NCBI RefSeq assembly: GCF_900188355.1
Contig: NZ_FZNX01000003.1
Location: 7,501 to 71,500 of the forward strand
DNA: 64,000 bases
From: Lutibacter flavus
GTDB taxonomy: Bacteria; Bacteroidota; Bacteroidia; Flavobacteriales; Flavobacteriaceae
Reading direction: 5' to 3'
Part shown: one piece after another, positions 1,569 to 16,475 of the stretch
Numbering within the stretch: the stretch's first letter is position 1
Layout of the letters: the number at the start of each line of letters is the position of its first letter
The notes under the pieces: model-generated
What the model was told of the DNA's origin: nothing
Seen by the model: only the letters and a program-made list of their open reading frames with translations
Databases searched by the model: none
Position numbers and translations under genes: made by a program

Positions 1569-3485
1569 ATGAAGAATACCATCGCAGAAAGAATTCTTGA
1601 TTTTTTAAAAGATTATCCGCCATTTAATCTTTTACCCAAATCAACTTTATTGGAAATAGCTAAAAATGTTGAGATTCATTATTTTGAAAAAGATCAAATA
1701 ATATTTAGCCAAAATGACAATCCTCATAAACATTTCTATATTGTTTATGAAGGCGCAATTAGATTATATAGGTTTGGAGCAGATAAAAAACATGTGATAG
1801 ATATTTGTGACGAAGGTGATTTGTTTGGTTTACGTCCATTAATTATGAAAGAGAATTATTTAATGGGTGCCGCTGCTAATGAAGAATCTATATTATATGG
1901 TATACCTATTGACCTTTTTAATGATATCATTTTAAATTACCCAAAAGTAAGTCAATTCTTAATTGCAAGTTTTGCAACAAATACAAGAGATCCTTTTTCG
2001 GATAAACATAAAGGGAAATTATTTGCAAATATTAAAGCAATAAAAAAGCCTGAGACCAATTTTATTGAAGCACAGAGTGCAAAATACACCCGAAATCCAA
2101 TAACTTGTTCTTCAGATATAACTGTGCAAGAAGCTGCTTTAACAATGACAAAAAACATTATAAACTCAATTGTTGTTACTGATAATAAAATTCCAATAGG
2201 AATTATAACTGATAAAGATATGAGGACTAAAATAGGAACTGGTCTTTATAAAATTACAGATACTGCAGGTGATATAATGACAAAGCCGGTAATTACTTTT
2301 CCCGAAAATATAACCGTTGCTGAAGCTCAAATTGCTAGATTAAAACATAAAGTTTCTCATTTATGTATTACAAAAGACGGTACAAATACATCTGAACTTG
2401 TTGGAATTTTATCTGAACATGATTTAAATTTAATTCAAGGAAACAATCCTTTATTGCTAATAAAAGAAATTAAAAATGCTAAAGACGCCGAGACATTAAA
2501 GTTTATCAGATCCAAAGCAGCTGACCTTACAAAAGGATACATTGAACAAGAGATACCTATTTATTTTGTGACAAAGGTAATTTCAGAAATAAATACAGCA
2601 ATTACAAAACGAGCAATAGAACTTTCAATTAATGAAATTGGTAGTAAACCACCTGTAAATTATTCTTGGTTTGCAGTTGGAAGTCAAGGAAGACAAGAGC
2701 AATTATTAATGACGGATCAAGATAATGCATTGGTTTTTGAAAATGTTAAAGAGGAACAATATGATAGTGTAAAAGCTTATTTTTTAAAACTAGCAACCAA
2801 AGTAACTGAAAAATTAAATATTGTTGGTTTTGATTATTGCCCGGCAAATATAATGGCTAGTAATCCAAAATGGTGTTTATCAATTGATCAGTGGAAACAA
2901 CAATTTAAAGAATGGATTAAGGACCCAATTCCTGAAAAAATATTATTAAGTATCATATTTTTTGATTTTGAATTAATTCATGGAAATCAAAAATTATACG
3001 ATGAAATGGCTAGAAGTGTACTGAAATTTATTAAAAAAAATCAGATAATCTTAAGTTTTCTAGGTAAAGCAACATTAGACAACCCTCCGCCACTTGGCTT
3101 TTTTAAACAATTTTTAGTTGAACAAGATGGAGAAAATAAAGATAATTTTGATATAAAATCCAGAGCAATTAGACCATTGGTTGATGCTGCCAGAATATTC
3201 TCACTATATCATGGTCTTCAAATTAATAACACTATTGCTAGATTTGAAAAATTAATGGAAGTTGAACCACAGAACAAAGATTTGTTTGAATCATGCTCTA
3301 ATGCTTTTAAAATATTATTAACCTTTAGAACTTCTCAAGGTTTAGCAAATAATGACACAGGAAGGTATGTTGATATAAATAGTCTAAGTAAAGCTGATAG
3401 ATTAAAACTAAAAAGCTGTTTTAACCCTATTAAAAATGTTCAAGAAGCAATAAAACTTCGATTTAAAACAACTCAAATTGGATAA
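1569..3485 (+). CDS. cNMP-binding / CBS / DUF294 nucleotidyltransferase-like signalling protein, copy 1
   Basis: This 638-residue protein has three recognisable parts: a cyclic-nucleotide-binding beta-roll (about 15-135, with the EGDLFGLRPL stretch), a tandem CBS pair (about 178-300), and a DUF294 region with a nucleotidyltransferase-like signature GSQGRQEQLLMTDQDNAL (about 368-386), followed by the helical DUF294 C-terminal domain. In many proteobacteria a protein of this architecture sits beside a DnaQ-like exonuclease, acs, the acetate symporter and a symporter-kinase. The same partners occur here, so a role in nucleotide-sensed control of acetate use is inferred. A close paralogue starts at 4215. 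The exonuclease gene follows after 2 bp. Confidence 0.85.
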   Translation: MKNTIAERILDFLKDYPPFNLLPKSTLLEIAKNVEIHYFEKDQIIFSQNDNPHKHFYIVYEGAIRLYRFGADKKHVIDICDEGDLFGLRPLIMKENYLMGAAANEESILYGIPIDLFNDIILNYPKVSQFLIASFATNTRDPFSDKHKGKLFANIKAIKKPETNFIEAQSAKYTRNPITCSSDITVQEAALTMTKNIINSIVVTDNKIPIGIITDKDMRTKIGTGLYKITDTAGDIMTKPVITFPENITVAEAQIARLKHKVSHLCITKDGTNTSELVGILSEHDLNLIQGNNPLLLIKEIKNAKDAETLKFIRSKAADLTKGYIEQEIPIYFVTKVISEINTAITKRAIELSINEIGSKPPVNYSWFAVGSQGRQEQLLMTDQDNALVFENVKEEQYDSVKAYFLKLATKVTEKLNIVGFDYCPANIMASNPKWCLSIDQWKQQFKEWIKDPIPEKILLSIIFFDFELIHGNQKLYDEMARSVLKFIKKNQIILSFLGKATLDNPPPLGFFKQFLVEQDGENKDNFDIKSRAIRPLVDAARIFSLYHGLQINNTIARFEKLMEVEPQNKDLFESCSNAFKILLTFRTSQGLANNDTGRYVDINSLSKADRLKLKSCFNPIKNVQEAIKLRFKTTQIG

Positions 3486-3487
3486 TT

Positions 3488-4156
3488 ATGCTTGGTTTCT
3501 TTAAGAAAAAAAAATACCCTCAATTTTGGAAAAATCATATTAAAAAAGTTTCAGAAAGTATAAAATATTCAAATTTTGAAAACATACGATTTGTTGCTCT
3601 AGATACCGAAACAACGGGTTTTGATTACGATAATGATCGAATATTATGTATTGGAGCTGTGGCTATTAAAAATAATAAAATACTCGTTTCAGATTCTTTC
3701 GAGGTTTATATAAAACAAGATGTTTTTAATAAAGAAACCGTGAAAATACATGGAATTAGAAAAAATGGTAACGAAATTAAAGTAAGTGAAGAGGAAGGAC
3801 TTATCAAATTTCTTGAATATTTAGATGACGCCATAATTGTTGCGCATCATACAAAATTTGATATTTCAATGATTAATGAAGGATTAAAAAGATTAAATGT
3901 TGGACCATTAAAATCTAAACAACTTGACACTAATTATATTCATAAAAAAATTGCATCTGAACATCGGTTTAAAAAATTATTTTCATTAGATGAACTTTGT
4001 ACAATTTATAATATAAAAATGCACGATAGGCATACTGCTTCTGGTGATGCACTTTTAACAGCCTATTTGTTTTTAAAATTGACAAATAAATTCAAAAAAA
4101 ATAACGCTCTTAATTTAAATGATTTAATAAAAACCAACTATTATTTAAATAAATAA
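3488..4156 (+). CDS. DnaQ-like 3'-5' exonuclease (DEDDh), copy 1
   Basis: This 222-residue protein has the DEDDh exonuclease signature. Exo I is LDTETTGFD with the two acidic residues, Exo II is AHHTKFDISM, and Exo III is HDRHTASGDALLTA with the catalytic His and Asp. It resembles the epsilon subunit or PolC exonuclease domain, but no polymerase part is present and no clamp-binding tail is evident. The first 40 residues (MLGFFKKKKYPQFW and following) are shared in pattern with the second copy at 11888. It is tightly coupled to the DUF294 gene upstream (2 bp). The biological substrate of these acetate-locus exonucleases is not known. Confidence 0.88.
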   Translation: MLGFFKKKKYPQFWKNHIKKVSESIKYSNFENIRFVALDTETTGFDYDNDRILCIGAVAIKNNKILVSDSFEVYIKQDVFNKETVKIHGIRKNGNEIKVSEEEGLIKFLEYLDDAIIVAHHTKFDISMINEGLKRLNVGPLKSKQLDTNYIHKKIASEHRFKKLFSLDELCTIYNIKMHDRHTASGDALLTAYLFLKLTNKFKKNNALNLNDLIKTNYYLNK

Positions 4157-4214
4157 CCTTCTTTTTTAAAACTTAAAATTTTGTAACTTTAGTGTTTATC
4201 ATCATTCCAAAAAC

Positions 4215-6134
4215 ATGAAAAACACCATTGCCGAACGCATTTTTGATTTTTTAAAAAACTTCCCTCCTTTTGACATATTAAATAAGGAACAATTATTAAA
4301 AATCTCAACAAATGTAAAAGTAATATATGTTGAAAATAATACGTTTGTTTTTAAGCAAGAAGAAAACCCTCATCAAAATTTTTACGTTGTTAAAGATGGA
4401 GCCATTGGTTTATATAGAGCAATAGAAAACGACCAAATATTAGTTGATATATGTGATGAAGGTGATATTTTTGGGCTTCGCCCCTTAGTTCAAAATGATC
4501 ATTATTTAATGAGTGCCAAAGCAAATGAAGAATCTATTTTATATGCTATTTCGGTAGATATCTTAAAAGAGATTATCGCAAGCAATGACAAGGTAAATAA
4601 ATTTTTAATTGCTAGTTTTTCATCAAATATTAAAACTCCATATGCCCAAAATAGTACTAGGCATTTATTTGCAAATGTTGAGACACTAGAAAGCAACAAT
4701 TCAAATTTAACAGATTTTCGTACAGCTGAATACAGTAAAAACCCTGTAACTTGTTCAAAATCCACAACAATTAAGGAAGCTGCTCTTATTATGAGTTCTA
4801 AAAGGGTTGGCTCAATTTTAATTATTGAAAGCAAGAATCCAATTGGAATAATTACAGATAAAGATTTGCGATTAAAAATTGCTACTGGATTGATTTCCAT
4901 AGATGAAAAAGTATCTGAAATAATGTCTTCTCCTGTAATAACAGTTTCTGAAAAAATTACAACAGCTGAGGCTCAAATAGCAATGTTAAAACATAAAATT
5001 ACACATTTATGTATTACAAAAGACGGCACACCAAATACTGAACTGATTGGAATTATGTCCGAACATGATATTGTGGTTTTACAAGGAAACAATCCTTCGG
5101 TTTTAATGAAAGAAATAAAACGTGCAAAGGATGTAAATACCTTAAAATATATAAGAGAAAAAGCTTCAACCTTATTAAAAAGTTATATTGAGCAAAGAAT
5201 CCCTATCACTTTCATTTCAAATATTATTTCAGAAATTACTAATGCAATTACCGTCAAGGCAATTGAACTTTCATTAAATGAAATGGATACAAAACCACCC
5301 GTAAAATTTGGATGGCTAGCATTAGGAAGTCAAGGTAGAAAAGAACAATTACTTATTACTGATCAAGATAATGCTTTGGTGTTTAATGATGTAAAAGAGG
5401 AAGATTATAGTAAAACAAAATCCTACTTTTTACTGCTGTCAAAAAAAATTACAGAAAAATTAAACATTGTTGGTTTTGAATATTGCCCTGCAGAAATGAT
5501 GGCAAGTAATCCAAATTGGTGTTTGTCACTTTGTGAATGGAACGCTCAATTTAATACTTGGATTACAAAACCAACCGAAAAAGCGATTATGATGTGTACT
5601 ATCTTTTTTGATTATAATTTAATTTATGGTGACAAAGAATTAGTTACCAAAATGTCTGAATTTATTTTTAAAACAATAAACTCATTTGAAATATTTTTAA
5701 ACTTTTTAGGCAAAAATGCTTTAATAAACCCTGCTCCTCTTGGTTTTTTTAGACAATTTTTGGTTGAAAACGATGGTAAACATAAAGATCAGTTTGATAT
5801 TAAAAGTAGAGCTTTAATGCCATTAATTGATGCTGCTAGATTGATTTCACTTTCACACAATTTTAAAGATGAAAACAATACTATTGCAAGATTTAAAAAA
5901 ATTGCTGAACTGGAACCTCAAAATAAAGATTTATATCTTTCTTGTTTAGACGCTTTTAAAATATTATTGAGATTCAGAACAGAACAAGGAATAAAACACA
6001 ACGATTCTGGTAGATATATTGCTTTAGACAATTTAAGTAAATCAGAAAAATTAAAACTTAAAAGTTGTTTTAAACCTATAAAAGACATTCAAGATTTACT
6101 AAATATAAGATATAACTTAGCTCAAATGATGTAA
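4215..6134 (+). CDS. cNMP-binding / CBS / DUF294 nucleotidyltransferase-like signalling protein, copy 2
   Basis: This 639-residue protein has the same domain order as the protein at 1569: a cyclic-nucleotide-binding domain (GDIFGLRPLV), two CBS repeats, and the DUF294 transferase-like signature GSQGRKEQLLITDQDNAL. The two proteins begin almost identically (MKNTIAERI followed by a D-F-L-K stretch) and align throughout without large gaps, so this is a tandem duplication. In copy 1 the exonuclease follows after 2 bp. Here the matching exonuclease lies 5.7 kb downstream at 11888, with unrelated genes between. The gene ends convergently to the minus-strand operon that finishes at 6279. Confidence 0.85.
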   Translation: MKNTIAERIFDFLKNFPPFDILNKEQLLKISTNVKVIYVENNTFVFKQEENPHQNFYVVKDGAIGLYRAIENDQILVDICDEGDIFGLRPLVQNDHYLMSAKANEESILYAISVDILKEIIASNDKVNKFLIASFSSNIKTPYAQNSTRHLFANVETLESNNSNLTDFRTAEYSKNPVTCSKSTTIKEAALIMSSKRVGSILIIESKNPIGIITDKDLRLKIATGLISIDEKVSEIMSSPVITVSEKITTAEAQIAMLKHKITHLCITKDGTPNTELIGIMSEHDIVVLQGNNPSVLMKEIKRAKDVNTLKYIREKASTLLKSYIEQRIPITFISNIISEITNAITVKAIELSLNEMDTKPPVKFGWLALGSQGRKEQLLITDQDNALVFNDVKEEDYSKTKSYFLLLSKKITEKLNIVGFEYCPAEMMASNPNWCLSLCEWNAQFNTWITKPTEKAIMMCTIFFDYNLIYGDKELVTKMSEFIFKTINSFEIFLNFLGKNALINPAPLGFFRQFLVENDGKHKDQFDIKSRALMPLIDAARLISLSHNFKDENNTIARFKKIAELEPQNKDLYLSCLDAFKILLRFRTEQGIKHNDSGRYIALDNLSKSEKLKLKSCFKPIKDIQDLLNIRYNLAQMM

Positions 6135-6278: not shown

Positions 6279-6623
6279 TTAGCTGCTTTTTATTTTTTTG
6301 TAACCTGTAATGTTAACTCGAGCAACCTTATTTTTTAAAGATAAATAATGACTTAATGGTTTTAAACCAAAAATTATAACGAAAATAGATAGACCAGACC
6401 TATAACCAGGAGAGATTAGAAAAATGGATAATATTAGAACAAATAAATAGTAATTAAATTTATAAATATAATCCCCAAACTCCTTCTTATTAGATTTAAA
6501 AGTATTTTTAATATGATCGTCTTCTTCTGTAACAAAAAGATTAAATTCTTTCCCTAGTAAAAATTTTTTTACAGCAGTAGACATTTCTAATTTATTTTTT
6601 CTTAAATAAGTTTCTATTTTCAT
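6279..6623 (-). CDS. Small two-TM protein of unknown function, last gene of a WYL-linked operon
   Basis: I do not recognise a family. The 114-residue protein has a charged N-terminal half (about 1-52, many K, E and D) and two hydrophobic segments, about 56-75 (YYLFVLILSIFLISPGY) and about 77-95 (LSIFVIIFGLKPLSHYL), with a short basic tail. It should sit in the cytoplasmic membrane with the N-terminal half in the cytoplasm. It starts 17 bp after the end of the preceding gene in the same operon. In a defence reading this would be the membrane component, but nothing in the sequence proves that. Confidence 0.6.
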   Translation of the reverse strand: MKIETYLRKNKLEMSTAVKKFLLGKEFNLFVTEEDDHIKNTFKSNKKEFGDYIYKFNYYLFVLILSIFLISPGYRSGLSIFVIIFGLKPLSHYLSLKNKVARVNITGYKKIKSS

Positions 6624-6640
6624 AATTATTTATTCATTTT

Positions 6641-7165
6641 TTAGAATTCAATATTTTCTCCATTGAAAAAATCACTAATTTCAATGTCAATATTTTTTTT
6701 GTTTTTTTGTTTATTATTTACGCTTATAATAGAAGCAACTTCTTCAAGAGAATTTAAACCATTCGATAGCATCTTTTCAACCTCATTGAAATCAGATTTA
6801 TTTTTAATAATTTGAAGTTTTAGATTTTCTATTTTTTTTGAAAAATTATTGAAAAATTTTTCCTTAATTATTAAATTTGAGATTCTCAATATATCCTTTT
6901 CTTTGTTTAAAACAAGAATATCAATTTCATTTTGAACAACTTCAATTCCTAAATTTATCAAGGTGTACTTTTGATTATCCGACAAAAAAGACATATATTC
7001 ATTACGATCAATCTTGATTTTAAGTCCGTTTATTATTTTTGTTTTATTTTCTTCTTTAAAAAGAATCTCACATGAAACACGCTTTATATTCTCAAAGAGA
7101 ATTAATTGGCTTTGATGCCTTTCTAAATAATCATAATTGTTATCTGCTAAGTTTATTTTATCCAT
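6641..7165 (-). CDS. Hypothetical protein, middle gene of a WYL-linked operon
   Basis: This 174-residue soluble protein has no family I can name. It has a mixed alpha/beta N-terminal two thirds, then a predicted helical region (about 105-150, rich in K, E, L and N), and an acidic C-terminus. No catalytic motif, signal peptide or membrane segment is visible. It lies 3 bp after the 588-residue protein gene and 17 bp before the two-TM protein gene, so the three are almost certainly co-translated parts of one system. Confidence 0.6.
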   Translation of the reverse strand: MDKINLADNNYDYLERHQSQLILFENIKRVSCEILFKEENKTKIINGLKIKIDRNEYMSFLSDNQKYTLINLGIEVVQNEIDILVLNKEKDILRISNLIIKEKFFNNFSKKIENLKLQIIKNKSDFNEVEKMLSNGLNSLEEVASIISVNNKQKNKKNIDIEISDFFNGENIEF

Positions 7166-7168
7166 ATT

Positions 7169-8935
7169 TTAATTAAAAGATAATGAAACTTCTTTTTTCT
7201 TTAGTTCTGCGGATAATACTGTTTTTGAAGCATCTGAAATTATTTTGACACTCTTCATTAATGCTTCTAATTTATCTTTCGAGTAATTACTCTCACTAAA
7301 TTGATTAAAAATCTTAAATGAATTTTCTTTTAACAAACCTTCTAATTTCAACTTTCTTTCTTCTAAAAGAGTAATGTCATTTTCTGCGATTTTCTTTAAA
7401 ACATCTTCATCTTTTAATGCAACTTCCCACGATTTATAAAGCTCTACAAAAGGCTCACAATTTTCTTTCCATTCCTTTTCTACTTCATTATATAGTTTAT
7501 TTCCATTACCTAATGAAATTATAGAATATAAGGTTGACGGCTTTTTTGGTCTTATGGTGAAAATATAATTATATTCAAAGTTACTATTGCTTAACAATTT
7601 AACATACTTTTCTTTTTCTTCATCTATAAAACGAAAGTTCCATTTTATATCCACTAATTCTCTTTCTATATCCCGTTTTTCTTTCAGTAACTTTGAATTT
7701 TTATCTCTAAGCTCATTTACATTCCCTATTGTAAGAATTTCAGTATATAAAGGCTTAATATCTGTAATTACAATTTGAGAAATACTATCAATAAATAATT
7801 TAAAACTTGGTATTAATTTATCCTTCAATTTTGAATAAAGCCCTCCCAATCGTAATATGTCAGATATAATTTTTTCACTATCATTATGCATCTGTTCCTT
7901 TATTAATTCAATATCTCTATATATTTTAGCTACAGTTTTTTTAGATTCACTTCTTGATTTCAACACACTAAAAGTCGCATCAATTGCAAGGCCAACAATG
8001 GCTCCTGAAACTTTCCCTTTAATATCTTTTTTTGAAATTGCACCGCTCTTTTCAAATGTATTTAATGTATTATCAAAAATCTTTTTTCCACTACTTAACC
8101 CAGTGTTAAGCAATGTTTTCATTTGAGCATTAAAAGCCTCATCAAAAATTTCCAAATCTTTATTTAAGCTCAAAAAATAGAGGTCAATTTTCTCCCAAGC
8201 ATCTTCAAAATCTAACCATTCCACACTATTAAAATCAAATAAATCTGGATTCGTTTGTTTTATTCTATCCCCAAATAAATCAATTAAAAGTTGAATTAAA
8301 TCTTCTCTTAATAGTTTTAATTCATTTCGCAAAAATTCAAAATCACTAATTACATTTAAATTAAGATCCTTTATATGTTCATATTCCTCAATAAGTTTTT
8401 TATAACCTGAAACTATTTCTCTTCCATATTTATAGGCGGCATCAACCTTACTACTTCCTGTAATTGAAAAAACTTCGTCTTCTCTAATTTCTTCATTACT
8501 TTTTAACAGATTATTAATTACACCAACTGAATTATTGTCTTTAATTAAATGAATGCTCTTTTCAATTAAATTAACATTATTGCTAAATGACATTTGATAC
8601 TCATCTGTAAAACTTAAAGAAGAACAATTTATAAATATTCTGTCTGGATTATAAATCCTATCATTTCCTATATTTTCCTTGAAATTATAAATAATAGCAT
8701 CACTAATTGTTTTGGAATGTAGAGAATTTGTATAAGCATCTTTTAATAGATTTTTTATAAAAAGACCTTCCTTCAGATCAAGGTCATCATATTTCAAATT
8801 AAGATATGACACAAGTCCCCTTCTGTTTAATATTTCTCCACTCTTTGATAATTGAATTGCTAACTCTTGAATTGTTTTTACCAATCCAGGATAATGAATT
8901 CTCAAATTACCCATTAAAATTTTTTCATAACTCAT
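7169..8935 (-). CDS. 588-residue helical protein with central hydrophobic stretch, unknown function
   Basis: I do not recognise this protein. It is almost entirely helical by composition. There is a coiled-coil-like region (about 395-450, with repeated E, K and L), and a central, Gly/Ala-rich, weakly hydrophobic stretch (about 305-323, KVSGAIVGLAIDATFSVLK), which could insert in a membrane or form a helical hairpin. The first 60 residues (HYPGLVKTIQELAIQLSKSG and following) look like a small helical head. No Walker, nuclease or NTase motif is visible. It is the largest product of the operon controlled by the promoter at 9461-9491. The fold could resemble alpha-helical pore-forming proteins, but this is speculation. 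Confidence 0.6.
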   Translation of the reverse strand: MSYEKILMGNLRIHYPGLVKTIQELAIQLSKSGEILNRRGLVSYLNLKYDDLDLKEGLFIKNLLKDAYTNSLHSKTISDAIIYNFKENIGNDRIYNPDRIFINCSSLSFTDEYQMSFSNNVNLIEKSIHLIKDNNSVGVINNLLKSNEEIREDEVFSITGSSKVDAAYKYGREIVSGYKKLIEEYEHIKDLNLNVISDFEFLRNELKLLREDLIQLLIDLFGDRIKQTNPDLFDFNSVEWLDFEDAWEKIDLYFLSLNKDLEIFDEAFNAQMKTLLNTGLSSGKKIFDNTLNTFEKSGAISKKDIKGKVSGAIVGLAIDATFSVLKSRSESKKTVAKIYRDIELIKEQMHNDSEKIISDILRLGGLYSKLKDKLIPSFKLFIDSISQIVITDIKPLYTEILTIGNVNELRDKNSKLLKEKRDIERELVDIKWNFRFIDEEKEKYVKLLSNSNFEYNYIFTIRPKKPSTLYSIISLGNGNKLYNEVEKEWKENCEPFVELYKSWEVALKDEDVLKKIAENDITLLEERKLKLEGLLKENSFKIFNQFSESNYSKDKLEALMKSVKIISDASKTVLSAELKKKEVSLSFN

Positions 8936-9004
8936 TTTATATTGTTTTATAATCTTTTAAAAAAAGCACTAACATTTCATTCAAATTAAATTGATTTCTA
9001 TAAA

Positions 9005-9154
9005 TCAATTATTTTCGTTCGATATTTTAACCCAAGAATGACTTGAAAGAGTAGCGCTAGAATTAGGTTGTTTACATTTTGTAGTAGTCCCCATTTTTGA
9101 AAGAAGAGTGTCATTTTTTGTAATTCCACAAACTCTACATTTATACGTTGCCAT
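9005..9154 (-). CDS. Small Cys/His protein, possible zinc ribbon, 49 residues
   Basis: A short frame from ATG at 9154 to TGA at 9005 encodes MATYKCRVCGITKNDTLLSK followed by a segment with a third Cys (TTTKCKQP) and a C-terminal HSWVKI. The C-x2-C pair, later Cys and His could hold one zinc. It lies between the DUF6140-like gene and the 588-residue protein gene, on the same strand, 75 bp and 69 bp away respectively, so it is probably part of the same operon. The coding call rests on the regular codon pattern, the metal-ligand spacing and the context. Confidence 0.6.
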   Translation of the reverse strand: MATYKCRVCGITKNDTLLSKMGTTTKCKQPNSSATLSSHSWVKISNENN

Positions 9155-9229
9155 ATTTACTATTTTAATGTTAGCTTACTCTAAGTTTTCAGCAACCCTT
9201 TTTTATAATTTCAATTTCAAAACCAGCCA

Positions 9230-9439
9230 TCAAACCCTCTCAAACTCAAAATACCCAGAATTCAAATACCCTTCCTTTTTAAAATCAATACCGTGTACTC
9301 TTGTAAAGGCTTTGTGTATTTTTTCAACTTCATCAAAAGGGTTTGAATACATGGAACTAATTTGTACAGACAATCCTTCATTTATATATTCTCCATTAAC
9401 ATTAATGGTTTGCTTGGTTTTAATTTCAAATGTTGCCAT
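9230..9439 (-). CDS. DUF6140-like small protein, first gene of a WYL-linked operon
   Basis: This 69-residue protein begins MATFEIKTKQTINVNGEYIN and ends with an FxRVHGIDFKKEGYLNSGYFE-type segment. It resembles a small Bacteroidota family that I believe is catalogued as DUF6140, whose function is unknown. It has no signal peptide or membrane segment. It is the first gene after the promoter at 9461-9491, with the ATG 22 bp downstream of the -7 element, so its start is well supported. A longer frame on the opposite strand (9108-9452) was rejected in its favour. Confidence 0.65.
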   Translation of the reverse strand: MATFEIKTKQTINVNGEYINEGLSVQISSMYSNPFDEVEKIHKAFTRVHGIDFKKEGYLNSGYFEFERV

Positions 9440-9460
9440 AATTCCTTTTTAGGATTAAGA

Positions 9461-9499
9461 CAAACATACCTTGCTCAAACGGACAAACAAAGTCCGTTT
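9461..9499 (-). promoter_or_regulatory. Promoter with overlapping inverted-repeat operator for the unknown operon
   Basis: On the minus strand there is a TATGTTTG element (9461-9468, TAnnTTTG type) and TTTG (9488-9491) with exactly 19 bp between them, the classical Bacteroidota promoter. A perfect inverted repeat, AAACGGAC, seven bases, GTCCGTTT (9477-9499), covers the -33 element. The repeat is G/C-rich relative to its surroundings. A repressor bound here would block transcription of the genes from 9439 to 6279. The WYL regulator ending at 9528 is the natural candidate. Confidence 0.75.
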
Positions 9500-9527
9500 A
9501 AGTAAAAAGAATTATTATATATAAATA

Positions 9528-10514
9528 TTATTTGTAGTATTCGGCAATTAAATCCAAATGTTCTTTGAAGTAATCTACAACAGGTTTTGGAGAAATAATT
9601 TTAACCCATTGGTTGTATTTAAGCATTTCCATAACAAACTCATAATTAGCTTTTAAAGTAACCTCAACTTCGCCCCACATATCAGGATTTGAATAATTAT
9701 GTTCATTTGAGTCCATTTCCTTGGCAAAAGAAATTAATTTTTGACTTTTATGAATAGGGCTGGCTAATAAGTACTTTAAATGATGATTGGCTACTTTAAT
9801 TCTAATTTTTTCAACTTTTAAACCTTCACTTAAAATTCCAATTGAATATCTAAAATACTCATCTTCATTAAATTCAATTGAATCTTCAACTATCTTATTA
9901 AAAATTTGAATTTTATCTAAACGTTCATCTAAGTAAAAAGTCTTTATTTTTTTATTATTAATATCATAGGCAATTAAGTGCCAAGATTTGTGCTTTTCTT
10001 TAATATGCAATGGTTGAAATTGTGTTTTTTCAACACTTTCAAACTTATTATCATCATACCAACCATTGTAAGATATATGAACTAAAAATTTATGTTCAAT
10101 AGCATTTATCAAGCTCAATAAATCTATGTTAGTATTTAAAGTTGCCTTATCTAACGTTATAAAAGAACTGCTTTCTGCCGCTTTCTTACTAATTAATAAG
10201 TGTTCTACCCTATAAAACACATTTTCCATTTCTAACGAAAGCTTACCTCCTTTTATATAATAACCAAAATTCCTTTTAAGTTTAATTTCAACTCCAAAAA
10301 ATTCTTTAATATAAACTAAATCTCTGCGTAACGTTTTTTCACTGTTAAATTTTAGTTTATCTAAAAAAGTATTTCCTTTAAACTCTTCAAACTTTTTAAT
10401 AAGTACTTTTTGAAGTTCGTGGCGCAACACAAATTCATCATTATAAATACCAAAATATTTTGGATTTGAAACAATTTTAAGAATATAATACCTTCTAAAG
10501 AATTCAGCGGTCAC
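9528..10514 (-). CDS. WYL-domain transcriptional regulator
   Basis: This 328-residue protein starts with GTG at 10514. An N-terminal winged-helix region (about 1-100, with EKTLRRDLVYIKEFFGVEIK as recognition and wing) is followed by a WYL domain (about 135-215: KSWHLIAYD then IKTFYLDERLDKIQ) and a WCX-like C-terminal segment (about 225-328). WYL proteins bind nucleic acid or nucleotide ligands and often control anti-phage operons (BrxR of BREX, CapW of CBASS). The gene lies 88 bp upstream of the operon at 9439-6279, and the gap holds that operon's promoter and operator. It is divergent from the flippase gene at 10579. Confidence 0.85.
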   Translation of the reverse strand: MTAEFFRRYYILKIVSNPKYFGIYNDEFVLRHELQKVLIKKFEEFKGNTFLDKLKFNSEKTLRRDLVYIKEFFGVEIKLKRNFGYYIKGGKLSLEMENVFYRVEHLLISKKAAESSSFITLDKATLNTNIDLLSLINAIEHKFLVHISYNGWYDDNKFESVEKTQFQPLHIKEKHKSWHLIAYDINNKKIKTFYLDERLDKIQIFNKIVEDSIEFNEDEYFRYSIGILSEGLKVEKIRIKVANHHLKYLLASPIHKSQKLISFAKEMDSNEHNYSNPDMWGEVEVTLKANYEFVMEMLKYNQWVKIISPKPVVDYFKEHLDLIAEYYK

Positions 10515-10578: not shown

Positions 10579-11841
10579 ATGCCGCAACTTTTTAGCAAAC
10601 AAGATTTTTTAAATACTAAATGGTTTATTGCTGAAAAATTGACTAGTTTATTAGTTGCAATAATTATTATTCCTAAAATTTTTAACTCACTTGGGGTACT
10701 CAATATTGGCAAACTAAAATTTGCGGAAACATTTGTTAACTTTTTCACTCCAATTATATTCTTAGGACTTTCTGCAATATGCATTCGTGAACTTATTTTT
10801 TACCCTAAACGCACAAAATTTATACTTGCAACAGCATTGTATTTAAGAACTGCTAGTTGGCTCCTAAGCTTAATTGTTATATTTACTTATACTTATTTTT
10901 TTATAGATAATAATTTATTAATACTATACCTTTTAATTTGTTTTAGTTATTTAGTAAGAGTGTTTGATGTTTTTGAATATTATTTTCACGCTATAAAACA
11001 AACTAAATATGTATTTATAAGTAAATCTATCAGTTTATTAATTGTTGTACTACTTCAATATTACGGAGTTAAGAATCAAATTGGAATTGAATATTTTGCT
11101 TCACTTATTATTTTAGACTTTTTAATCCAAAGCATTATATATTATAGCATTATAAAAACTAAAAACATTTTTAGCTTTAAAGATCTTGTATTTTCTAAAG
11201 TATTGGCTAAATATCTTTTGAAAAATTCTTTTCCGTTAATATTGTCTAACTTTTTAATTTTAATTTATATTGTAACAGACGATTTTATTTTAAAATATTA
11301 TCATGGCGATGAATCCTATGGATTGTATTCAACCATTTACTATTTAATAATAACTTTAACTTGGAGTATAGGTTTTTCTATTATAAACGCATTGTTTCCT
11401 TCTTTAGCAGAATCTTACACAACAAATCTTCGAGTATATTATCAAAAAATAAGTTCAATAATTATTTATATGCTAGCATTAGGAGTTTTAATTATTATTT
11501 GTTACAACTTATTTAGCTATCACATTTTAAATAATTTTTTTGATAAAAGTTTTCTTAAAATTAATAACATGCTAAAACTATTTAGTTGGGCACCTCTATT
11601 TATTTTTATAGGTATGATTTTTGAAAAACACCTAATTATTACAAATCATATTGAAAAAAACGTATATCGGTTTATTCTAGGCTGCATTTCAAATTTAATT
11701 CTTTCAATGATATTAATTCCAAAATACGAAATTACTGGTGCAATTATAGCTGTATTATTTAGCCATTTTATAACAAATATTGGTTTCCTCTTTTTAGACA
11801 CTAAAAGCAGAAAACAATTAAATTTTTTGTTTTTGAAATAA
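10579..11841 (+). CDS. Oligosaccharide flippase family (Wzx/MATE-like) membrane protein
   Basis: This 420-residue protein is very hydrophobic, with about 12 membrane segments spread along its whole length and short polar loops, as in the MVF/polysaccharide-export superfamily. The N-terminal segments (NSLGVLNIGKLKFAETFVNF) and the central D-D-F-I-L-K-Y-Y-H-G stretch match lipid-linked oligosaccharide flippases. No glycosyltransferases accompany it, which is unusual for a Wzx gene. A TATATTTG element lies at 10560-10567, just before the ATG, but no well-spaced -33 is visible. The gene is divergent from the WYL regulator and is followed by the second exonuclease gene. Confidence 0.75.
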   Translation: MPQLFSKQDFLNTKWFIAEKLTSLLVAIIIIPKIFNSLGVLNIGKLKFAETFVNFFTPIIFLGLSAICIRELIFYPKRTKFILATALYLRTASWLLSLIVIFTYTYFFIDNNLLILYLLICFSYLVRVFDVFEYYFHAIKQTKYVFISKSISLLIVVLLQYYGVKNQIGIEYFASLIILDFLIQSIIYYSIIKTKNIFSFKDLVFSKVLAKYLLKNSFPLILSNFLILIYIVTDDFILKYYHGDESYGLYSTIYYLIITLTWSIGFSIINALFPSLAESYTTNLRVYYQKISSIIIYMLALGVLIIICYNLFSYHILNNFFDKSFLKINNMLKLFSWAPLFIFIGMIFEKHLIITNHIEKNVYRFILGCISNLILSMILIPKYEITGAIIAVLFSHFITNIGFLFLDTKSRKQLNFLFLK

Positions 11842-11887
11842 CTTTTTAAATATTGTATATCTTTATTAAGAAATAAAAAACTAATTG

Positions 11888-12550
11888 ATGTTCTCTTTTT
11901 TTAAACAAAAAACATATCCTGAATTCTATAAAAACTACCTTAAAAGTTTCAAGCAAAAACCTTCAAAAAAAATAGAAGATACACGTTTTGTTATTTTTGA
12001 TACAGAAACTACAGGTTTAGATCTTGAAAAAGACAGAATTCTATCTATTGGAGCAATTGGCGTTTTTAATAATACTATTGATGTTGCTGACAATTTTGAA
12101 GTTTACATAACCCAAAACGAATTTAATACCGAAACTGTTGAAATACACGGATTATTAAAAGAAGGAAAACTAATAAAAAGCAATGAAAATGAAGCAATTC
12201 AACAATTTATTTCCTTTTTAGGAAACGCTGTTTTAGTTGCGCACCACGCTGCTTTTGATATTGAAATGATAAATGCTTCATTAAAAAGAATAAATCTCCC
12301 AAAACTTAAAAATAAAAGTATTGATACAGGTATTTTATACAAAAAATTAGAAGGTAAAAAAGAAAACCATTTTAATTTAGACGTTTTGTGCGATGAATTT
12401 AATATTCCAAAACATGACAGGCATACCGCTTCTGGAGATGCTTTTATTACAGCACTTTTATTCTTAAAAATATTATCAAAATTAAAAAAGGAAAGAACGG
12501 TTCATTATTCCGATTTATTTAGAACTTCAAATAAAGAAGGTTTAATTTAA
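11888..12550 (+). CDS. DnaQ-like 3'-5' exonuclease (DEDDh), copy 2
   Basis: This 220-residue paralogue of the protein at 3488 keeps all DEDDh motifs: FDTETTGLD, AHHAAFDIEM, and HDRHTASGDAFITA. I chose the ATG at 11888 over a TTG one codon upstream because the protein then starts MFSFFKQKTYPEFY, parallel to copy 1. It lies directly upstream of the convergent acyl-CoA synthetase gene, the place this exonuclease usually takes in acetate loci. Its own DUF294 partner (4215-6134) is separated from it by the flippase, WYL regulator and unknown operon. Confidence 0.87.
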   Translation: MFSFFKQKTYPEFYKNYLKSFKQKPSKKIEDTRFVIFDTETTGLDLEKDRILSIGAIGVFNNTIDVADNFEVYITQNEFNTETVEIHGLLKEGKLIKSNENEAIQQFISFLGNAVLVAHHAAFDIEMINASLKRINLPKLKNKSIDTGILYKKLEGKKENHFNLDVLCDEFNIPKHDRHTASGDAFITALLFLKILSKLKKERTVHYSDLFRTSNKEGLI

Positions 12551-12599: not shown

Positions 12600-15500
12600 T
12601 TATTTAACCAATGATCCATCCATTATAGCCGCAACTACATCTGGATTTAATAAAGTTGAAATATCACCTAAATTAGAGGTTTCATTCTCTGCAATTTTTC
12701 TTAAAATTCTACGCATAATTTTACCTGAACGTGTTTTAGGCAATCCTGGAACAAATTGAATTTTATCTAGTTTTGCTATCGGTCCAATAGTTCGAGCAAT
12801 TAAATCGTTAATTTCTTTTCTTAAGAAATCATCATTTTCAGGAGTTTCATATACAATAACATACGCATATAAAGCATTCCCTTTTATATCGTGCGGATAT
12901 CCTACTATTGCAGATTCAACCACATTATTGTGCTCATTTATTATATTTTCAATTGGTGCTGTTCCTAAATTATGTCCGGAAACAATAACAACATCATCTA
13001 CTCTACCTGTAATTCTATAATTTCCTTCTAAATCTCTAAAGGAACCGTCTCCTGTAAAGTATTTCCCTGGAAAAGCCGAGAAATAGGTTTCTTTATAACG
13101 CTTATGATCGCCATAAATAGTTCGTGCCATTGATGGCCAAGGATATTTAATACATAATTTACCTTCCGAAGGATTTGACATTAATTCCTCCCCATTTTCA
13201 TCAACCAAACAAGGTTGAATTCCTGGTAATGGGCGCGTTGCAAAAGTTGGTTTTGTTGGAGTTACTCCACCTAAAGGAGATATCATTATTCCTCCAGTTT
13301 CTGTTTGCCACCAAGTATCTACAATTGGAGATTTTTGTTGACCAATTTTCTCATTATACCAGTGCCAAGCTTCCTCATTAATTGGCTCTCCCACCGTACC
13401 TAAAACTTTAATAGAACTTAAATCGTGTTTTTCAATTAGCTCATTAGGTTGTGCAGCTAATGCTCTAATCGCAGTTGGTGCAGTGTAAAATTGATTTACC
13501 TGATGTTTTTCAACAATTTCCCAAAATCGCCCATAATCTGGATACGAAGGAATTCCTTCAAACATTAAAGTAGTTGCTCCTGCCGCTAATGGTCCATAAA
13601 CAATATAAGAATGACCAGTAATCCAACCAATGTCAGCGGTACAAAAATAAACATCACCATGTTGATATTGAAACACATTTTTAAAACTGTATGCTGTATG
13701 AATCATATAACCTGCGCAGGTATGTACCATTCCTTTTGGTTTTCCAGTTGAACCAGAAGTGTATAATATGAATAACATATCTTCTGCATCCATTTCTTCA
13801 GCTGGACAAATATCATTTACTTTCTCCAATTCATCATGCCACCAAACATCCCGACCTGCTTTCATTGTTACTTCAGAATTGATTCTATTAAGAACAATTG
13901 AAGTTTCAATTGTTGGTGTAGATTCTAATGCTTCGTCAACAATTCCTTTTAAATCCACAGCTTTTTTACCTCTAAAAACTCCATCTGTGGTTAATAAAAC
14001 TTTACATTCTGCATCATTAATTCTTGTTGATAATGCTACTGATGAAAATCCTGCGAAAACCACTGAATGCACTGCTCCAATTCTTGCACAAGCCAAAACT
14101 GCAATTGCCAATTCCGGAACCATAGGCATATAAACACACACTCTATCTCCTTTACCTACATTATTATTTTTTAACACATTAGCAAACCTACTTACTTCGG
14201 AATGCAACTCTTTATATGTGAAATTTCTATTTGCCTCATTTGGATCATTTGGCTCCCAAATAATAGCTAAATCATCTCCTCTTTTATCTAAATGACGATC
14301 CAAACAATTTTCAGTAATATTTAATTTGGCTCCCTTAAACCATTCGAATTTTGGGGTTTCCCAATCATATTCAACTACTTTATCCCACTTTTTACGCCAA
14401 GTAAAAGTATCCGCAATTTGAGACCAGAATCCCTCGGGATCATTTACACTATGTTGATAAGACTTATAATATTTTATAAATGAATTCACTTGTAAATCAT
14501 CAAGTGTTTCCTTTTCTTCAATTGTAGCGTGCTCAAAAATTCCAATTTTATGTAACTTGAATTCGTGAGTGATTTCTGAAATAATTTCAGGATCATCAAT
14601 TGTTGAAGGAATTGTATATTCAACTCCATCAGCAATATTTCTCAATAATTTTCTTAGAATTTTTCCTGATCGAGTTTTAGGTAAACGCTTTACTATTAAT
14701 ACTTTTCTTAAAGCTGCAACTGCCCCAATTTGTTTTCTAACTGTTTGAACAATATTGTATTCTAACTCAAAACTTGATACATAATCTCCAGATTTAAGAA
14801 CAACTAGAGCTAAAGGAATTTGCCCTTTTAATTGATTCTCAATTCCGAAAACTGCACATTCGGCAACGGAAGGATTCGAAGAAACAATTTCTTCCATTTC
14901 AGCAGTAGACAATCTATGACCGGCAACATTTATTACATCATCTACCCTACCTGTTATAAATACATAACCATCTTCATCTATGTAACCGCCATCACCAGAA
15001 AAATAATATCCCTCAAATTTTTTCAAATACCCCTCTACAAATCGATCTGTGTTTTCCCAAATATTTAACAAATTTCCAGGAGGAAGTGGCAATTTTACAG
15101 CTACAAACCCTTCTTCATTTGCACCAACTTTCTGTCCATCCCTATTTAATATTTGAATATCATAACCACTTACTGGTTTTGATGCAGATCCCGGTTTAAC
15201 AGGTAGCGCCTCCACTCCCATCATATTTGAAGCCATTGGCCAACCAGATTCTGTTTGCCACCAATGGTCGATTACAGGAACTTGTAATTTATCTTCTAAC
15301 CAATTTAATGTAGCAATATCACAACGTTCTCCGGCAAGAAACTGATATTTCAAACAACTTAAATCGTATTTTTTCATTAACTCACCATCCGGATCTTCTT
15401 TTTTGATAGCTCTTATTGCCGTTGGAGCAGTGAACATTACTTTCACATTATTCTCACTAATTATTCTCCAAAAAGTACTTGCGTCTGGAGTTTTAATTGG

Positions 15501-16424
15501 TTTTCCTTCATATATTATTGTAGTATTTCTGTTTAAAAGTGGTCCATAAACTATATAACTATGTCCTACAACCCAACCAACATCAGATGCAGACCAAAAC
15601 ACATCTCCTTCTTCTACTCCATAAACATTTTTCATTGAATATTTTAAGGCAGTAGCATAACCACCACTATCACGTAAAATACCTTTTGGTTTTCCAGTGG
15701 TCCCTGAAGTGTATAAAATATATAACGGATCTGTTGAAGAAACCTCAACACATTCTGCCGGTTTAGATTTTTCAACTAATTCTCTATACCCTACAAAACG
15801 ATGTGTTTTTGTCATTAGCGCTCCCAACCTGCGTTGAAAAACAATTACTTTATCTGGTTTATGAGTTGCTTTTTCAATTGCTTCATCAACCATTGGTTTG
15901 TAAGCTATAAGTCTATCAACCTCAATTCCTGAAGTAGCAGTTATTATCACTTTTGGCTTACAATCGTCTATTCTAATTGCCAATTCATGAGGTGCAAAAC
16001 CTCCAAAAACAACTGAATGTATTGCACCGATTCTAGCGCAAGCCAGCATACTGAATGCCGCATGTGGAATCATTGGCATATATATTATTACAGTATCTCC
16101 TTTTTTAACTCCTAAATCGCGAAGCCCCCCAGCTAAGCGTTCAACTTCACTTTTAACCTCATTAAAACTATATTGTAATTTTCGTTGAGTTACGGGTGAA
16201 TCATAAATTATTGCAGTTTGCTCTCCATATCCATCTTCAATATGCTTATCTAATGCTAAATAACAAACATTTAATTTCCCATCAGCAAACCAACGATCAA
16301 AACCATTTTCATCTTTTGATAAAATTGATTTTGGTTGTTGATACCATTCAATATTTTTCGCTTGTTCTTCCCAAAACTGCTCAGGGTTTTCAATACTTCT
16401 ATTATAATGTTTTTGATAGCTCAT
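12600..16424 (-). CDS. acs: Fused propionyl-CoA synthetase-like / acetyl-CoA synthetase
   Basis: One uninterrupted frame encodes two complete AMP-forming acyl-CoA synthetases. The N-terminal half (about 1-635) is PrpE-like, with YTSGTTGKPKG near 240 and the acetyl-regulated lysine motif PKTRSGKILR near 588. The C-terminal half (about 645-1274) is a typical Acs, with YTSGSTGKPKG near 893, WWQTETGG, and PKTRSGKIMRR near 1230. Single enzymes are usually 620-660 residues, so this is about double. I chose the ATG at 16424 (MSYQKHYN) because an Acs-type N-terminus starts there. An upstream in-frame ATG at 16454 would add 10 residues. A GTG in the linker might allow separate translation of the Acs half. 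It activates acetate and probably propionate to CoA esters. Confidence 0.9.
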   Translation of the reverse strand: MSYQKHYNRSIENPEQFWEEQAKNIEWYQQPKSILSKDENGFDRWFADGKLNVCYLALDKHIEDGYGEQTAIIYDSPVTQRKLQYSFNEVKSEVERLAGGLRDLGVKKGDTVIIYMPMIPHAAFSMLACARIGAIHSVVFGGFAPHELAIRIDDCKPKVIITATSGIEVDRLIAYKPMVDEAIEKATHKPDKVIVFQRRLGALMTKTHRFVGYRELVEKSKPAECVEVSSTDPLYILYTSGTTGKPKGILRDSGGYATALKYSMKNVYGVEEGDVFWSASDVGWVVGHSYIVYGPLLNRNTTIIYEGKPIKTPDASTFWRIISENNVKVMFTAPTAIRAIKKEDPDGELMKKYDLSCLKYQFLAGERCDIATLNWLEDKLQVPVIDHWWQTESGWPMASNMMGVEALPVKPGSASKPVSGYDIQILNRDGQKVGANEEGFVAVKLPLPPGNLLNIWENTDRFVEGYLKKFEGYYFSGDGGYIDEDGYVFITGRVDDVINVAGHRLSTAEMEEIVSSNPSVAECAVFGIENQLKGQIPLALVVLKSGDYVSSFELEYNIVQTVRKQIGAVAALRKVLIVKRLPKTRSGKILRKLLRNIADGVEYTIPSTIDDPEIISEITHEFKLHKIGIFEHATIEEKETLDDLQVNSFIKYYKSYQHSVNDPEGFWSQIADTFTWRKKWDKVVEYDWETPKFEWFKGAKLNITENCLDRHLDKRGDDLAIIWEPNDPNEANRNFTYKELHSEVSRFANVLKNNNVGKGDRVCVYMPMVPELAIAVLACARIGAVHSVVFAGFSSVALSTRINDAECKVLLTTDGVFRGKKAVDLKGIVDEALESTPTIETSIVLNRINSEVTMKAGRDVWWHDELEKVNDICPAEEMDAEDMLFILYTSGSTGKPKGMVHTCAGYMIHTAYSFKNVFQYQHGDVYFCTADIGWITGHSYIVYGPLAAGATTLMFEGIPSYPDYGRFWEIVEKHQVNQFYTAPTAIRALAAQPNELIEKHDLSSIKVLGTVGEPINEEAWHWYNEKIGQQKSPIVDTWWQTETGGIMISPLGGVTPTKPTFATRPLPGIQPCLVDENGEELMSNPSEGKLCIKYPWPSMARTIYGDHKRYKETYFSAFPGKYFTGDGSFRDLEGNYRITGRVDDVVIVSGHNLGTAPIENIINEHNNVVESAIVGYPHDIKGNALYAYVIVYETPENDDFLRKEINDLIARTIGPIAKLDKIQFVPGLPKTRSGKIMRRILRKIAENETSNLGDISTLLNPDVVAAIMDGSLVK

Positions 16425-16475
16425 ATTTAATATGGTTTTTGTTGTTAAATCCAAACTACATTGGATTCTAATAAT

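What the first reader, a model, noticed from the sequence alone, without database searches (positions are those of the whole stretch)
6279..10514. Unrecognised five-gene operon with a WYL regulator and an operator over its promoter
Seen: a minus-strand promoter TTTG-N19-TAnnTTTG (9461-9491) is overlapped by a perfect repeat AAACGGAC-N7-GTCCGTTT (9477-9499). Upstream is a WYL regulator; downstream are a DUF6140-like protein, a 49-residue Cys protein, a 588-residue helical protein with a central hydrophobic stretch, a 174-residue protein and a two-TM protein, with gaps of 3 and 17 bp between the last three. Known: WYL repressors BrxR and CapW bind inverted repeats at promoters of BREX and CBASS. 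Inference: the operon is an inducible system, most likely anti-phage, whose large helical and two-TM proteins may attack the membrane. None of the proteins matches a defence family I know.
Basis: partly seen in the sequence, partly recalled or inferred. Interest (0 to 1): 0.78.

Follow-up and report, generated by a model that had tools for sequence, protein, structure and literature searches.

The report
WYL-controlled slot with exchangeable gene cassettes
A regulator gene sits at a fixed place in the chromosomes of several related bacteria next to its own switch sequence, and the genes wired to that switch differ from species to species; several look like anti-phage genes, so this may be a ready-made inducible socket for swapping immune genes.

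Summary
In detail: six ORFs, 3- and 17-bp gaps, and a perfect operator AAACGGAC-N7-GTCCGTTT, found once in this genome. Related genomes change the picture. Fourteen orthologous WYL genes were found (4 of 38 genus genomes, 11 of 329 family genomes, the window's in both). In 13 of 14 the WYL gene lies beside the same flippase gene. In 12 of 14 the operator follows the WYL stop, with a TAnnTTTG box always starting 29 or 31 bp after the operator's first base. The genes behind it are swapped: the window's 588/174/two-TM triad (also in two other genera), a PADLOC defence candidate, HNH-like proteins, a GTPase plus DUF1232, or nothing. In one genome the triad lies just upstream of Ssp phosphorothioation defence genes. 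The window's 114-residue protein is a short form of a 364-415-residue membrane protein with an SH3 domain, so this copy may be impaired. The CapW/BrxR repressor analogy is only partly right: the site is centred near -31 and was not found before the WYL gene, closer to the WYL activators DriD and SiwR. An anti-phage role is likely but untested; the fold and the direction of control are unknown.

The parts
9528..10514 (-). WYL-domain regulator, 328 aa (GTG start as listed)
   Evidence: PF13280 E 4e-6; orthologues 77, 71 and 60% identical in 3 other genus genomes and 38-43% in 10 family genomes; W178, L180, D196 and R198 invariant and Y179 nearly so in 14 aligned
9477..9499 (-). operator AAACGGAC-TTTGTTT-GTCCGTTT
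   Evidence: perfect 8-bp arms; only perfect copy in the genome; found in 12 of 14 slots after the WYL stop; 15 sites in 208 kb of slot DNA against 0 in the reversed control
9461..9468 (-). -7 promoter box TATGTTTG, starting 31 bp after the operator's first base
   Evidence: consensus from PMC6847099 section 14
9488..9491 (-). TTTG at the -33 position, inside the operator spacer
   Evidence: TTTG at N19 in 5 of 12 slot promoters
9230..9439 (-). small leader protein, DUF6140, 69 aa
   Evidence: PF19637 E 4e-11; by sequence also in G395, G970, G1037, G1000 and G1006 (two, the second degraded); only its first codons in G409 and G396 (by eye)
9005..9154 (-). small Cys leader protein, 49 aa, MATYKCRVCG
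   Evidence: similar CxxC leaders, by eye, in G989, G788, G1006 (two), G1000 and a second unit of G409; no family hit above cut-off
7169..8935 (-). large helical cargo protein, 588 aa, with a weakly hydrophobic G/A-rich stretch at 307-325
   Evidence: no family hit in Pfam, PADLOC or NCBIfam at E 1 and only E 0.046 or worse in PHROGs; 37-38% identical relatives in G990 and G1006, 20-24% in Bacteroidales loci; hydropathy 1.39
6641..7165 (-). second cargo protein, 174 aa
   Evidence: homologues of 174 and 179 aa follow the large protein in G990 and G1006 and align end to end
6279..6623 (-). third cargo protein, 114 aa, two-TM; short relative to 364- and 415-aa homologues that carry a further TM and a C-terminal SH3_3 domain
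10579..11841 (+). conserved flank: flippase (Polysacc_synt)
   Evidence: PF01943 E 1e-14; homologue beside the WYL gene in 12 of the 13 other loci
4215..6134 (+). conserved flank: cNMP-CBS-DUF294 protein
   Evidence: 76-78% identical and directly beyond the slot in G409, G396 and G395

Best explanation
A WYL regulator fixed at one chromosomal slot controls, through a 23-bp operator centred over the -33 region of a -7-type promoter, whatever gene cassette occupies the slot. SHOWN by comparison: the slot, the operator, the fixed operator-promoter spacing, the exchange of cargo, the recurrence of small leader proteins (Cys-type and/or DUF6140) before different cargo, and the 588/174/membrane-protein triad as one recurrent cassette. 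INFERRED: the WYL protein binds the operator and acts mainly on this promoter. On a signal held in its WYL domain (by analogy with DriD and PafBC, single-stranded DNA from damage or phage replication) it switches the cassette on, slightly more likely by direct activation as with DriD and SiwR than by relief of repression as with CapW and BrxR. The third protein anchors a complex of the two soluble helical proteins at the inner membrane, which there stops phage infection or sacrifices the cell. The window's copy lacks the third protein's C-terminal TM and SH3 part and may be impaired.
For: WYL orthologues: 4 of 38 genus genomes, 11 of 329 family genomes, 14 distinct loci. Same flippase beside WYL in 13 of 14; the other flank gene also shared by G000, G409, G396 and G395. 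Operator after WYL in 12 of 14 (at least 13 of 16 positions; 0 of 500 mononucleotide shuffles each) with TAnnTTTG at exactly 29 or 31; whole-region scan 15 sites, 15 with that spacing, 0 in the reversed control. Cargo differs in each of the four genus genomes. Triad in two more genera behind such an operator. Defence links: PDC-M40B E 1e-30, 1e-8 and 9e-7 in three slots, LeoBC E 1e-7 in a fourth; the G1006 triad beside SspA, SspB, SspC, SspD and an Orf5/SspE-like protein, with an integrase and an HTH_17 protein near the slot. Activator geometry: DriD site centred on a weak -35 at constant distance from -10 (PMC12340889 section 11); SiwR palindrome between siwR and its target, with a -26 motif (PMC10693628); G at -10/-9 in 10 of 12 first promoters against 10 of 56 other boxes (p 3e-5).
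Against: No binding, expression or phage test exists. PADLOC candidates are predictions, and the window's own cargo has no defence hit. Three slots have no cargo and one only a leader, so a WYL gene without effector is tolerated. The three extra promoters (G970, G990, G1037) have no G at -10/-9, which lowers the count to 10 of 15 (p 5e-4). The -33 motif is weak in F. johnsoniae generally (PMC6847099), so its lack is weak evidence for an activator. Similarity to solved WYL proteins is not significant (best WYL chains 7u02 and 7tzv E 0.26-0.27, 8tp8 E 1.1). G1037's first site is degenerate (10 of 16) and G859 has none. The structure of the large protein is unresolved.
Confidence: 0.55

Rival explanations
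1. Classical repressor: the WYL protein shuts the promoter until a ligand releases it, as CapW for CBASS and BrxR for BREX; same slot and cargo, opposite sign.
For: CapW and BrxR are WYL proteins that bind palindromes or inverted repeats at defence promoters and repress (passages of PMC9122588 and PMC9122601). The operator covers the -33 position, and in 5 of 12 loci a TTTG lies at N19 inside it, which a bound dimer could mask.
Against: The operator does not overlap the -7 box (it ends 6 or 8 bp before it). No operator was found before the WYL gene (best 8-11 of 16 in 150 bp, in-gene control 9-11 of 16 in 400 bp; none in the scan), unlike the own-gene control reported for CapW. Spacing is held at 29 even in the 7 loci without a -33 motif.
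Confidence: 0.4
2. General stress cassette, not anti-phage: the swapped proteins repair or protect the envelope under damage, as suggested by membrane-linked families that recur (DUF1232, DUF697 GTPase, SH3, and in the Bacteroidales loci a dynamin-like GTPase and DUF4112).
For: Membrane-linked families in cargo and in the distant loci. SiwR, close in regulatory layout, acts under genotoxic or oxidative stress (PMC10693628).
Against: PDC-M40B-like proteins with HNH-like motifs (motif read by eye) and the Ssp, TerY and PP2C genes beside one triad; exchange between sister species is, from general knowledge, more typical of defence than of housekeeping.
Confidence: 0.25
3. The window's cassette is a decaying remnant: the third gene is truncated and the system does nothing here.
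For: 114 aa against 364 and 415 aa; similarity stops near residue 110, and the flank gene ends 144 bp beyond the third gene. Other slots are visibly eroded (G396 and G409 DUF6140 stubs, G1037 orphan operator).
Against: The 588- and 174-aa frames are intact and the operator is perfect; the retained part keeps the N-terminal hydrophobic segments, so a short form could work.
Confidence: 0.3
4. The 588-aa protein is a pore former of the alpha-PFT (ClyA, SmhB/AhlB) kind.
For: Predicted all-helical, with one Gly/Ala-rich hydrophobic stretch kept in the two nearest relatives; SmhB and AhlB appear in the Foldseek list.
Against: Every Foldseek match has E above 0.6 on a model of pLDDT 46, which is no evidence; the stretch is weak (hydropathy 1.35-1.6) and partly missing in the Bacteroidales relatives.
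Confidence: 0.12

Closest known systems
SiwR and its DinB-like operon (WYL activator, mycobacteria; PMC10693628: start of abstract, section 12 and passages read)
   Same: WYL gene next to its target genes with the palindrome in the gap between them, over the -35 to -10 region
   Different: different phylum, cargo and sigma factor; no exchange of cargo and no leader proteins described in the parts I read
DriD (WYL activator, Caulobacter; preprint PMC12340889: section 11 and passages read)
   Same: 20-bp pseudopalindrome centred on a weak -35 element at constant distance from the -10
   Different: DriD has sites in several promoters; here one promoter of this kind was found in the genome; sequence similarity not significant (8tp8 E 1.1)
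CapW (CBASS) and BrxR (BREX) (PMC9122588, PMC9122601: passages read)
   Same: WYL protein, palindromic site at a defence promoter, diverse downstream systems
   Different: CapW sites overlap -10; CapW and BrxR sites lie in front of their own gene; here the site is behind the WYL gene and upstream of -7; cargo is not BREX or CBASS
CapK/CapS upstream of diverse immune operons (PMC13373217: start of abstract in the listing only)
   Same: regulators standing before different immune operons, linked to DNA damage
   Different: not described as WYL in what I saw; I did not read whether a fixed chromosomal slot occurs there
PDC-M40B (PADLOC candidate)
   Same: the 560-aa cargo of the G409 slot matches over residues 117-474 (E 1e-30); short HNH-like proteins in two other slots match weakly
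   Different: not present in the window's cassette

Membership tests
CapW/BrxR WYL repressors | WYL domain | tested here: met
   PF13280 E 4e-6, above cut-off
CapW/BrxR WYL repressors | palindromic operator at the promoter | tested here: met
   (sequence and conservation; no binding assay)
CapW/BrxR WYL repressors | site in front of its own gene | tested here: not met
   best 8-11 of 16 within 150 bp upstream of WYL in 14 loci, in-gene control 9-11; none in the scan
CapW/BrxR WYL repressors | site overlaps the -10 box (CapW) | tested here: not met
   operator ends 6 or 8 bp before the TAnnTTTG box
CapW/BrxR WYL repressors | represses its operon | not testable with these tools
   needs expression data
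DriD/SiwR-type WYL activators | site centred on the -35 region at constant distance from the -10 | tested here: met
   15 of 15 sites at 29 or 31 bp; centre at -30 or -32 by the numbering of PMC6847099
DriD/SiwR-type WYL activators | non-optimal -35 and -10 elements | tested here: inconclusive
   no TTTG/TTG at spacer 15-25 in 7 of 12; G at -10/-9 in 10 of 12 first promoters but 10 of 15 with the extra units; -33 is weak in F. johnsoniae generally
DriD/SiwR-type WYL activators | sequence relationship | tested here: inconclusive
   8tp8 E 1.1 and PafBC 6sj9 E 2.8 with the 14-sequence profile; other WYL chains E 0.26-1
DriD/SiwR-type WYL activators | activation on ssDNA or damage | not testable with these tools
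   needs experiment
known anti-phage system | window cargo matches a PADLOC model | tested here: not met
   no hit below E 0.06 for the five cargo proteins
known anti-phage system | location in a defence island | tested here: inconclusive
   no sign in the window (only the six genes were scanned with PADLOC); met for the same triad in G1006 (SspA-D, SspE/Orf5-like, TerY, PP2C)
alpha pore-forming toxin | ClyA-like fold | tested here: inconclusive
   pLDDT 46, Foldseek E above 0.6

The most novel reading that the evidence does not exclude
The locus is a dedicated plug-in socket for inducible immunity: a resident WYL damage sensor with repeated operator-promoter-leader units, between or behind which immune cassettes are gained and lost by recombination in the leader genes, so that each newcomer is at once under damage-inducible control. 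The 588/174/membrane-SH3 triad is an undescribed effector that plugs into it.
Probability: 0.35. Interest if true: 0.82.

Novelty: new variant of a known kind. Interest (0 to 1): 0.63.

Why it matters
Defence hotspots and WYL regulators are known separately. A fixed regulator with a conserved operator-promoter spacing whose cargo is exchanged between sister species gives a simple way to find new defence genes: read what lies behind the operator. It bears on how newly acquired toxic immune genes are kept silent, since the promoter would belong to the host slot. It also adds a Bacteroidota-type promoter to the open question of whether WYL proteins at defence loci activate or repress, which one reporter assay could settle.

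Tried and rejected
Family searches of the 588-, 174- and 114-aa proteins in Pfam, PADLOC, NCBIfam and PHROGs gave no hit above a curated cut-off and nothing better than E 0.007. PDB sequence searches of the 588 family (best E 0.084, best E 0.073, unrelated names) and of WYL (none at E 0.01) gave nothing. Single-sequence AlphaFold (pLDDT 36) and a five-row alignment (pLDDT 46) did not give a usable fold; the Foldseek list was treated as uninformative. Searches for 588 relatives in phages, in viral contigs and in a first genome-contig scan found none; 395 phylum genomes, 395 order genomes (partly the same genomes) and 38 genus genomes gave only the window's own genome. In some searches at most 2-3 first-look candidates per genome were scored, so absence there is weak evidence; at most 6, so 11 of 329 is a lower bound. 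A 204-genome family search gave the own hit plus one 62-residue scrap (E 8.7e-4, G919), not followed; it evidently did not include G990 or G1006. DUF6140: 1 of 198 phylum genomes, the own one; none in plasmids or phages. The idea that G409's 560-aa protein is a divergent 588 homologue was rejected (best BLASTP E 0.6). The Bacteroidales DUF6140 genes show no shared operator and their WYL is distant from the window's (19% identity, E 8e-8), so the slot model is limited to the window's family. The argument that the missing -33 proves an activator was dropped after reading that -33 is weak in F. johnsoniae. Literature searches: DUF6140, 0 papers; PDC-M40, 0; WYL + hotspot + defence + Bacteroidetes + cargo, 20 papers with at least 4 of 5 terms, 15 listed, one read in passages (PMC10924106: WYL-defence co-localisation, no such slot in the passages); WYL + Flavobacter + phage defense + regulator, 2 papers, one read in passages. 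These cover only an open-licence library.

Full report
What is there. The six minus-strand genes, their gaps and the perfect inverted repeat are as described. Only the WYL domain and DUF6140 reach a Pfam cut-off; the 588-, 174-, 114- and 49-residue proteins have no hit above cut-off in Pfam or NCBIfam and no convincing one in PADLOC or PHROGs. The genome holds one perfect operator; of 11 imperfect copies (up to 3 mismatches) three were inspected and none is followed by a -7 box.

The regulator sits in a fixed slot. The WYL protein searched in 38 genomes of the genus gave 4 with a close orthologue, the own one included (60-100% identity), and 5 more with only 27-32% paralogues. Of 329 genomes of the family, 11 have a full-length relative (own, plus ten at 38-43%), with a wide gap to the rest (E 6e-65 against 5e-17). 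That makes 14 loci. In 13 of 14 the WYL gene stands beside a homologue of the flippase gene at 10579-11841 (exception G791). In the four genus genomes the far side is the same cNMP-CBS-DUF294 gene (76-78% identity). From the WYL stop to that gene it is 330 bp in G396, 1,081 in G395, 3,394 in the window and 3,845 in G409. G396 matches the window from the WYL gene up to the first codons of DUF6140 (E 2e-40) and again from about 115 bp before the flank gene onward (E 3e-44).

The switch is conserved. After the WYL stop, 12 of 14 loci have a site with at least 13 of 16 operator positions (0 of 500 mononucleotide shuffles each); G1037 (10 of 16) and G859 do not. In all 12 a TAnnTTTG box starts 29 or 31 bp after the first base of the site. 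A scan of all 208 kb of these regions finds 15 sites, every one with that spacing in one orientation, and none in the reversed-sequence control. The three additional sites lie before DUF1232 in G970, before the triad in G990, and, as an orphan without a following gene on its strand, in G1037. A degenerate further copy, not among the 15, lies before a Cys leader in G409. By the numbering in PMC6847099 section 14 the operator spans -41 to -19 or (as in the window) -43 to -21, centred at -30 or -32.

The cargo is exchanged. Behind the switch (small leaders judged by eye): window, DUF6140 + Cys + 588 + 174 + 114. G1006, Cys and DUF6140 with a 94%-identical duplication of about 257 bp (the second DUF6140 is degraded), then 578 + 179 + 364 relatives of the triad. 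G990, a lipoprotein-like 279-aa protein, then a second operator, a small ORF and the 578 + 174 + 415 triad. G409, an ORF of 13 codons whose first nine are those of DUF6140, then 560 aa + 252 aa + DUF1232, then a second unit with a Cys leader. G395, DUF6140 + 176 aa. G970, DUF6140 + GTPase with DUF697, then DUF1232 behind its own operator. G1037, DUF6140 + 289 + 437 + 168 aa. G1000, Cys + DUF6140 + 679 + 171 + 144 aa. G989, Cys + 148 aa. G788, a Cys leader and a scrap of DUF6140. G396, G922 and G859 have no cargo; G791, on a short contig, has another regulator-like gene and is unclear. Leaders therefore recur with different cargo, and the genes behind them do not, except the triad (three genera) and DUF1232 (two).

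The triad. The large protein is 37-38% identical to its relatives in G990 and G1006 and 20-24% to Bacteroidales ones. The second protein aligns end to end. The third protein of the relatives has TM segments, a linker and a C-terminal SH3_3 domain (E 3e-6 and 5e-6, at the curated cut-off); the window's version stops at residue 114. More distant relatives of the large protein occur in Segatella, Leyella and other Bacteroidales. There the next gene is a DUF4112 membrane protein (Pfam in L002; same sequence by eye in L004-L006). DUF6140 genes lie near in L002, L004, L005 (two) and L008 (fragment), and a WYL gene in L004, L005 and L007, 3 of 6 loci; dynamin-like GTPases with TerB-like and helical domains lie in L008 and an AAA ATPase in L004. 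That WYL is only 19% identical to the window's. A fold could not be determined.

Links to defence. The 560-aa cargo of G409 matches PADLOC PDC-M40B (E 1e-30) and has relatives on 22 plasmid records, 14 of them typed conjugative. The 144- and 148-aa cargo of G1000 and G989 match the same model weakly (1e-8, 9e-7); the GTPase of G970 matches LeoBC (1e-7). The other cargo proteins scanned had no PADLOC hit at E 0.01: the third triad protein of G1006 and G990 and two proteins of G1000; the 252-aa and DUF1232 proteins of G409, three of G1037, DUF1232 of G970 and the 176-aa protein of G395. In G1006 the triad is followed, after one small ORF, by SspA/DndA (8e-142), PbeA (E 0) and a PbeC/LmuB-like protein (4e-23), then by an Orf5/SspE-like protein, SspD, SspC, SspB, PP2C and TerY, with a tyrosine recombinase and an HTH_17 protein on the other side of the slot. 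In the window only the six genes were scanned against PADLOC, and only WYL matched. That PDC stands for phage defence candidate is recalled; the tool text calls the library one of known and candidate systems.

How it most likely works. WYL repressors at defence loci bind over the -10 (CapW) or in front of their own gene (BrxR) (passages). Here the site is behind the WYL gene, over the -33 region, at constant distance from the -7, and was not found before the WYL gene. This is the layout of DriD (site centred on a weak -35, constant distance to -10; preprint, section 11) and resembles SiwR (palindrome between regulator and target, -26 motif); both are activators, and DriD binds ssDNA (abstract start). 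Ten of 12 first slot promoters carry a G at -10/-9, a count I made by hand, against 10 of 56 other distinct intergenic boxes in the same DNA (p 3e-5; 10 of 57 with a duplicate; boxes chosen by a rule of mine, not from mapped starts). The three extra units have no such G, which makes it 10 of 15 (p 5e-4). In F. johnsoniae 241 probable promoters have virtually none. Such non-consensus boxes suit an activated promoter, but -33 is weak in Flavobacterium anyway and no expression was measured. I put activation at a little over even odds. The likely signal is damage or phage replication. The likely effector is a membrane-anchored complex with two helical cytosolic proteins; this step is inference from hydropathy, the SH3 prediction and gene order.

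Limits. Cargo was called from ORFs, not annotation. G990 and G1006 were found through the WYL gene, so their triads do not independently prove association; the Bacteroidales loci do so only partly, since several are near-copies of one another. The genome searches sample representative genomes and score few candidates each; the slot was met in 14 loci only.

Noticed in passing
L021 (G409), 9560-9810 counted in the WYL-forward orientation: A second, degenerate operator-promoter with a complete Cys leader gene lies downstream of the DUF1232 cargo gene, so the cassette sits between two switch/leader units; suggests exchange by recombination between repeats.
   Followed up: partly
L066 (G1037), 7008 in the WYL-forward orientation: An orphan operator-promoter of the same type and spacing without a following gene on its strand, apparently the rest of a lost unit.
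   Followed up: partly
L070 and L071 (G1006): A large island in one species holds Ssp phosphorothioation genes, TerY, PP2C, a DUF697 protein and a tyrosine recombinase around the WYL slot.
   Followed up: partly
L004, L005, L008 (Leyella, Segatella copri): Clusters with DUF6140 plus, variously, dynamin-like GTPases (L008), an AAA ATPase (L004), DUF4112 and a WYL gene (L004, L005); the L005 DUF6140 copy at 3638 and the L008 one share a perfect 10-bp inverted repeat upstream.
   Followed up: partly
window 12600-16454 (-): One 1284-aa ORF holds two acetyl-CoA synthetase units (ACAS_N, AMP-binding and AMP-binding_C each with two stretches), apparently a tandem fusion.
   Followed up: no
window 1569-6134 and 11885-12550 (+): Two paralogous CBS-DUF294-type genes and two similar DEDD-type exonuclease genes bracket the slot; the gene at 1569-3485 was judged by eye only.
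   Followed up: no
L023 (G396), 7445-8706: The flippase gene of this genome is split into two overlapping ORFs (343 and 84 aa), a possible frameshift or sequencing error.
   Followed up: no
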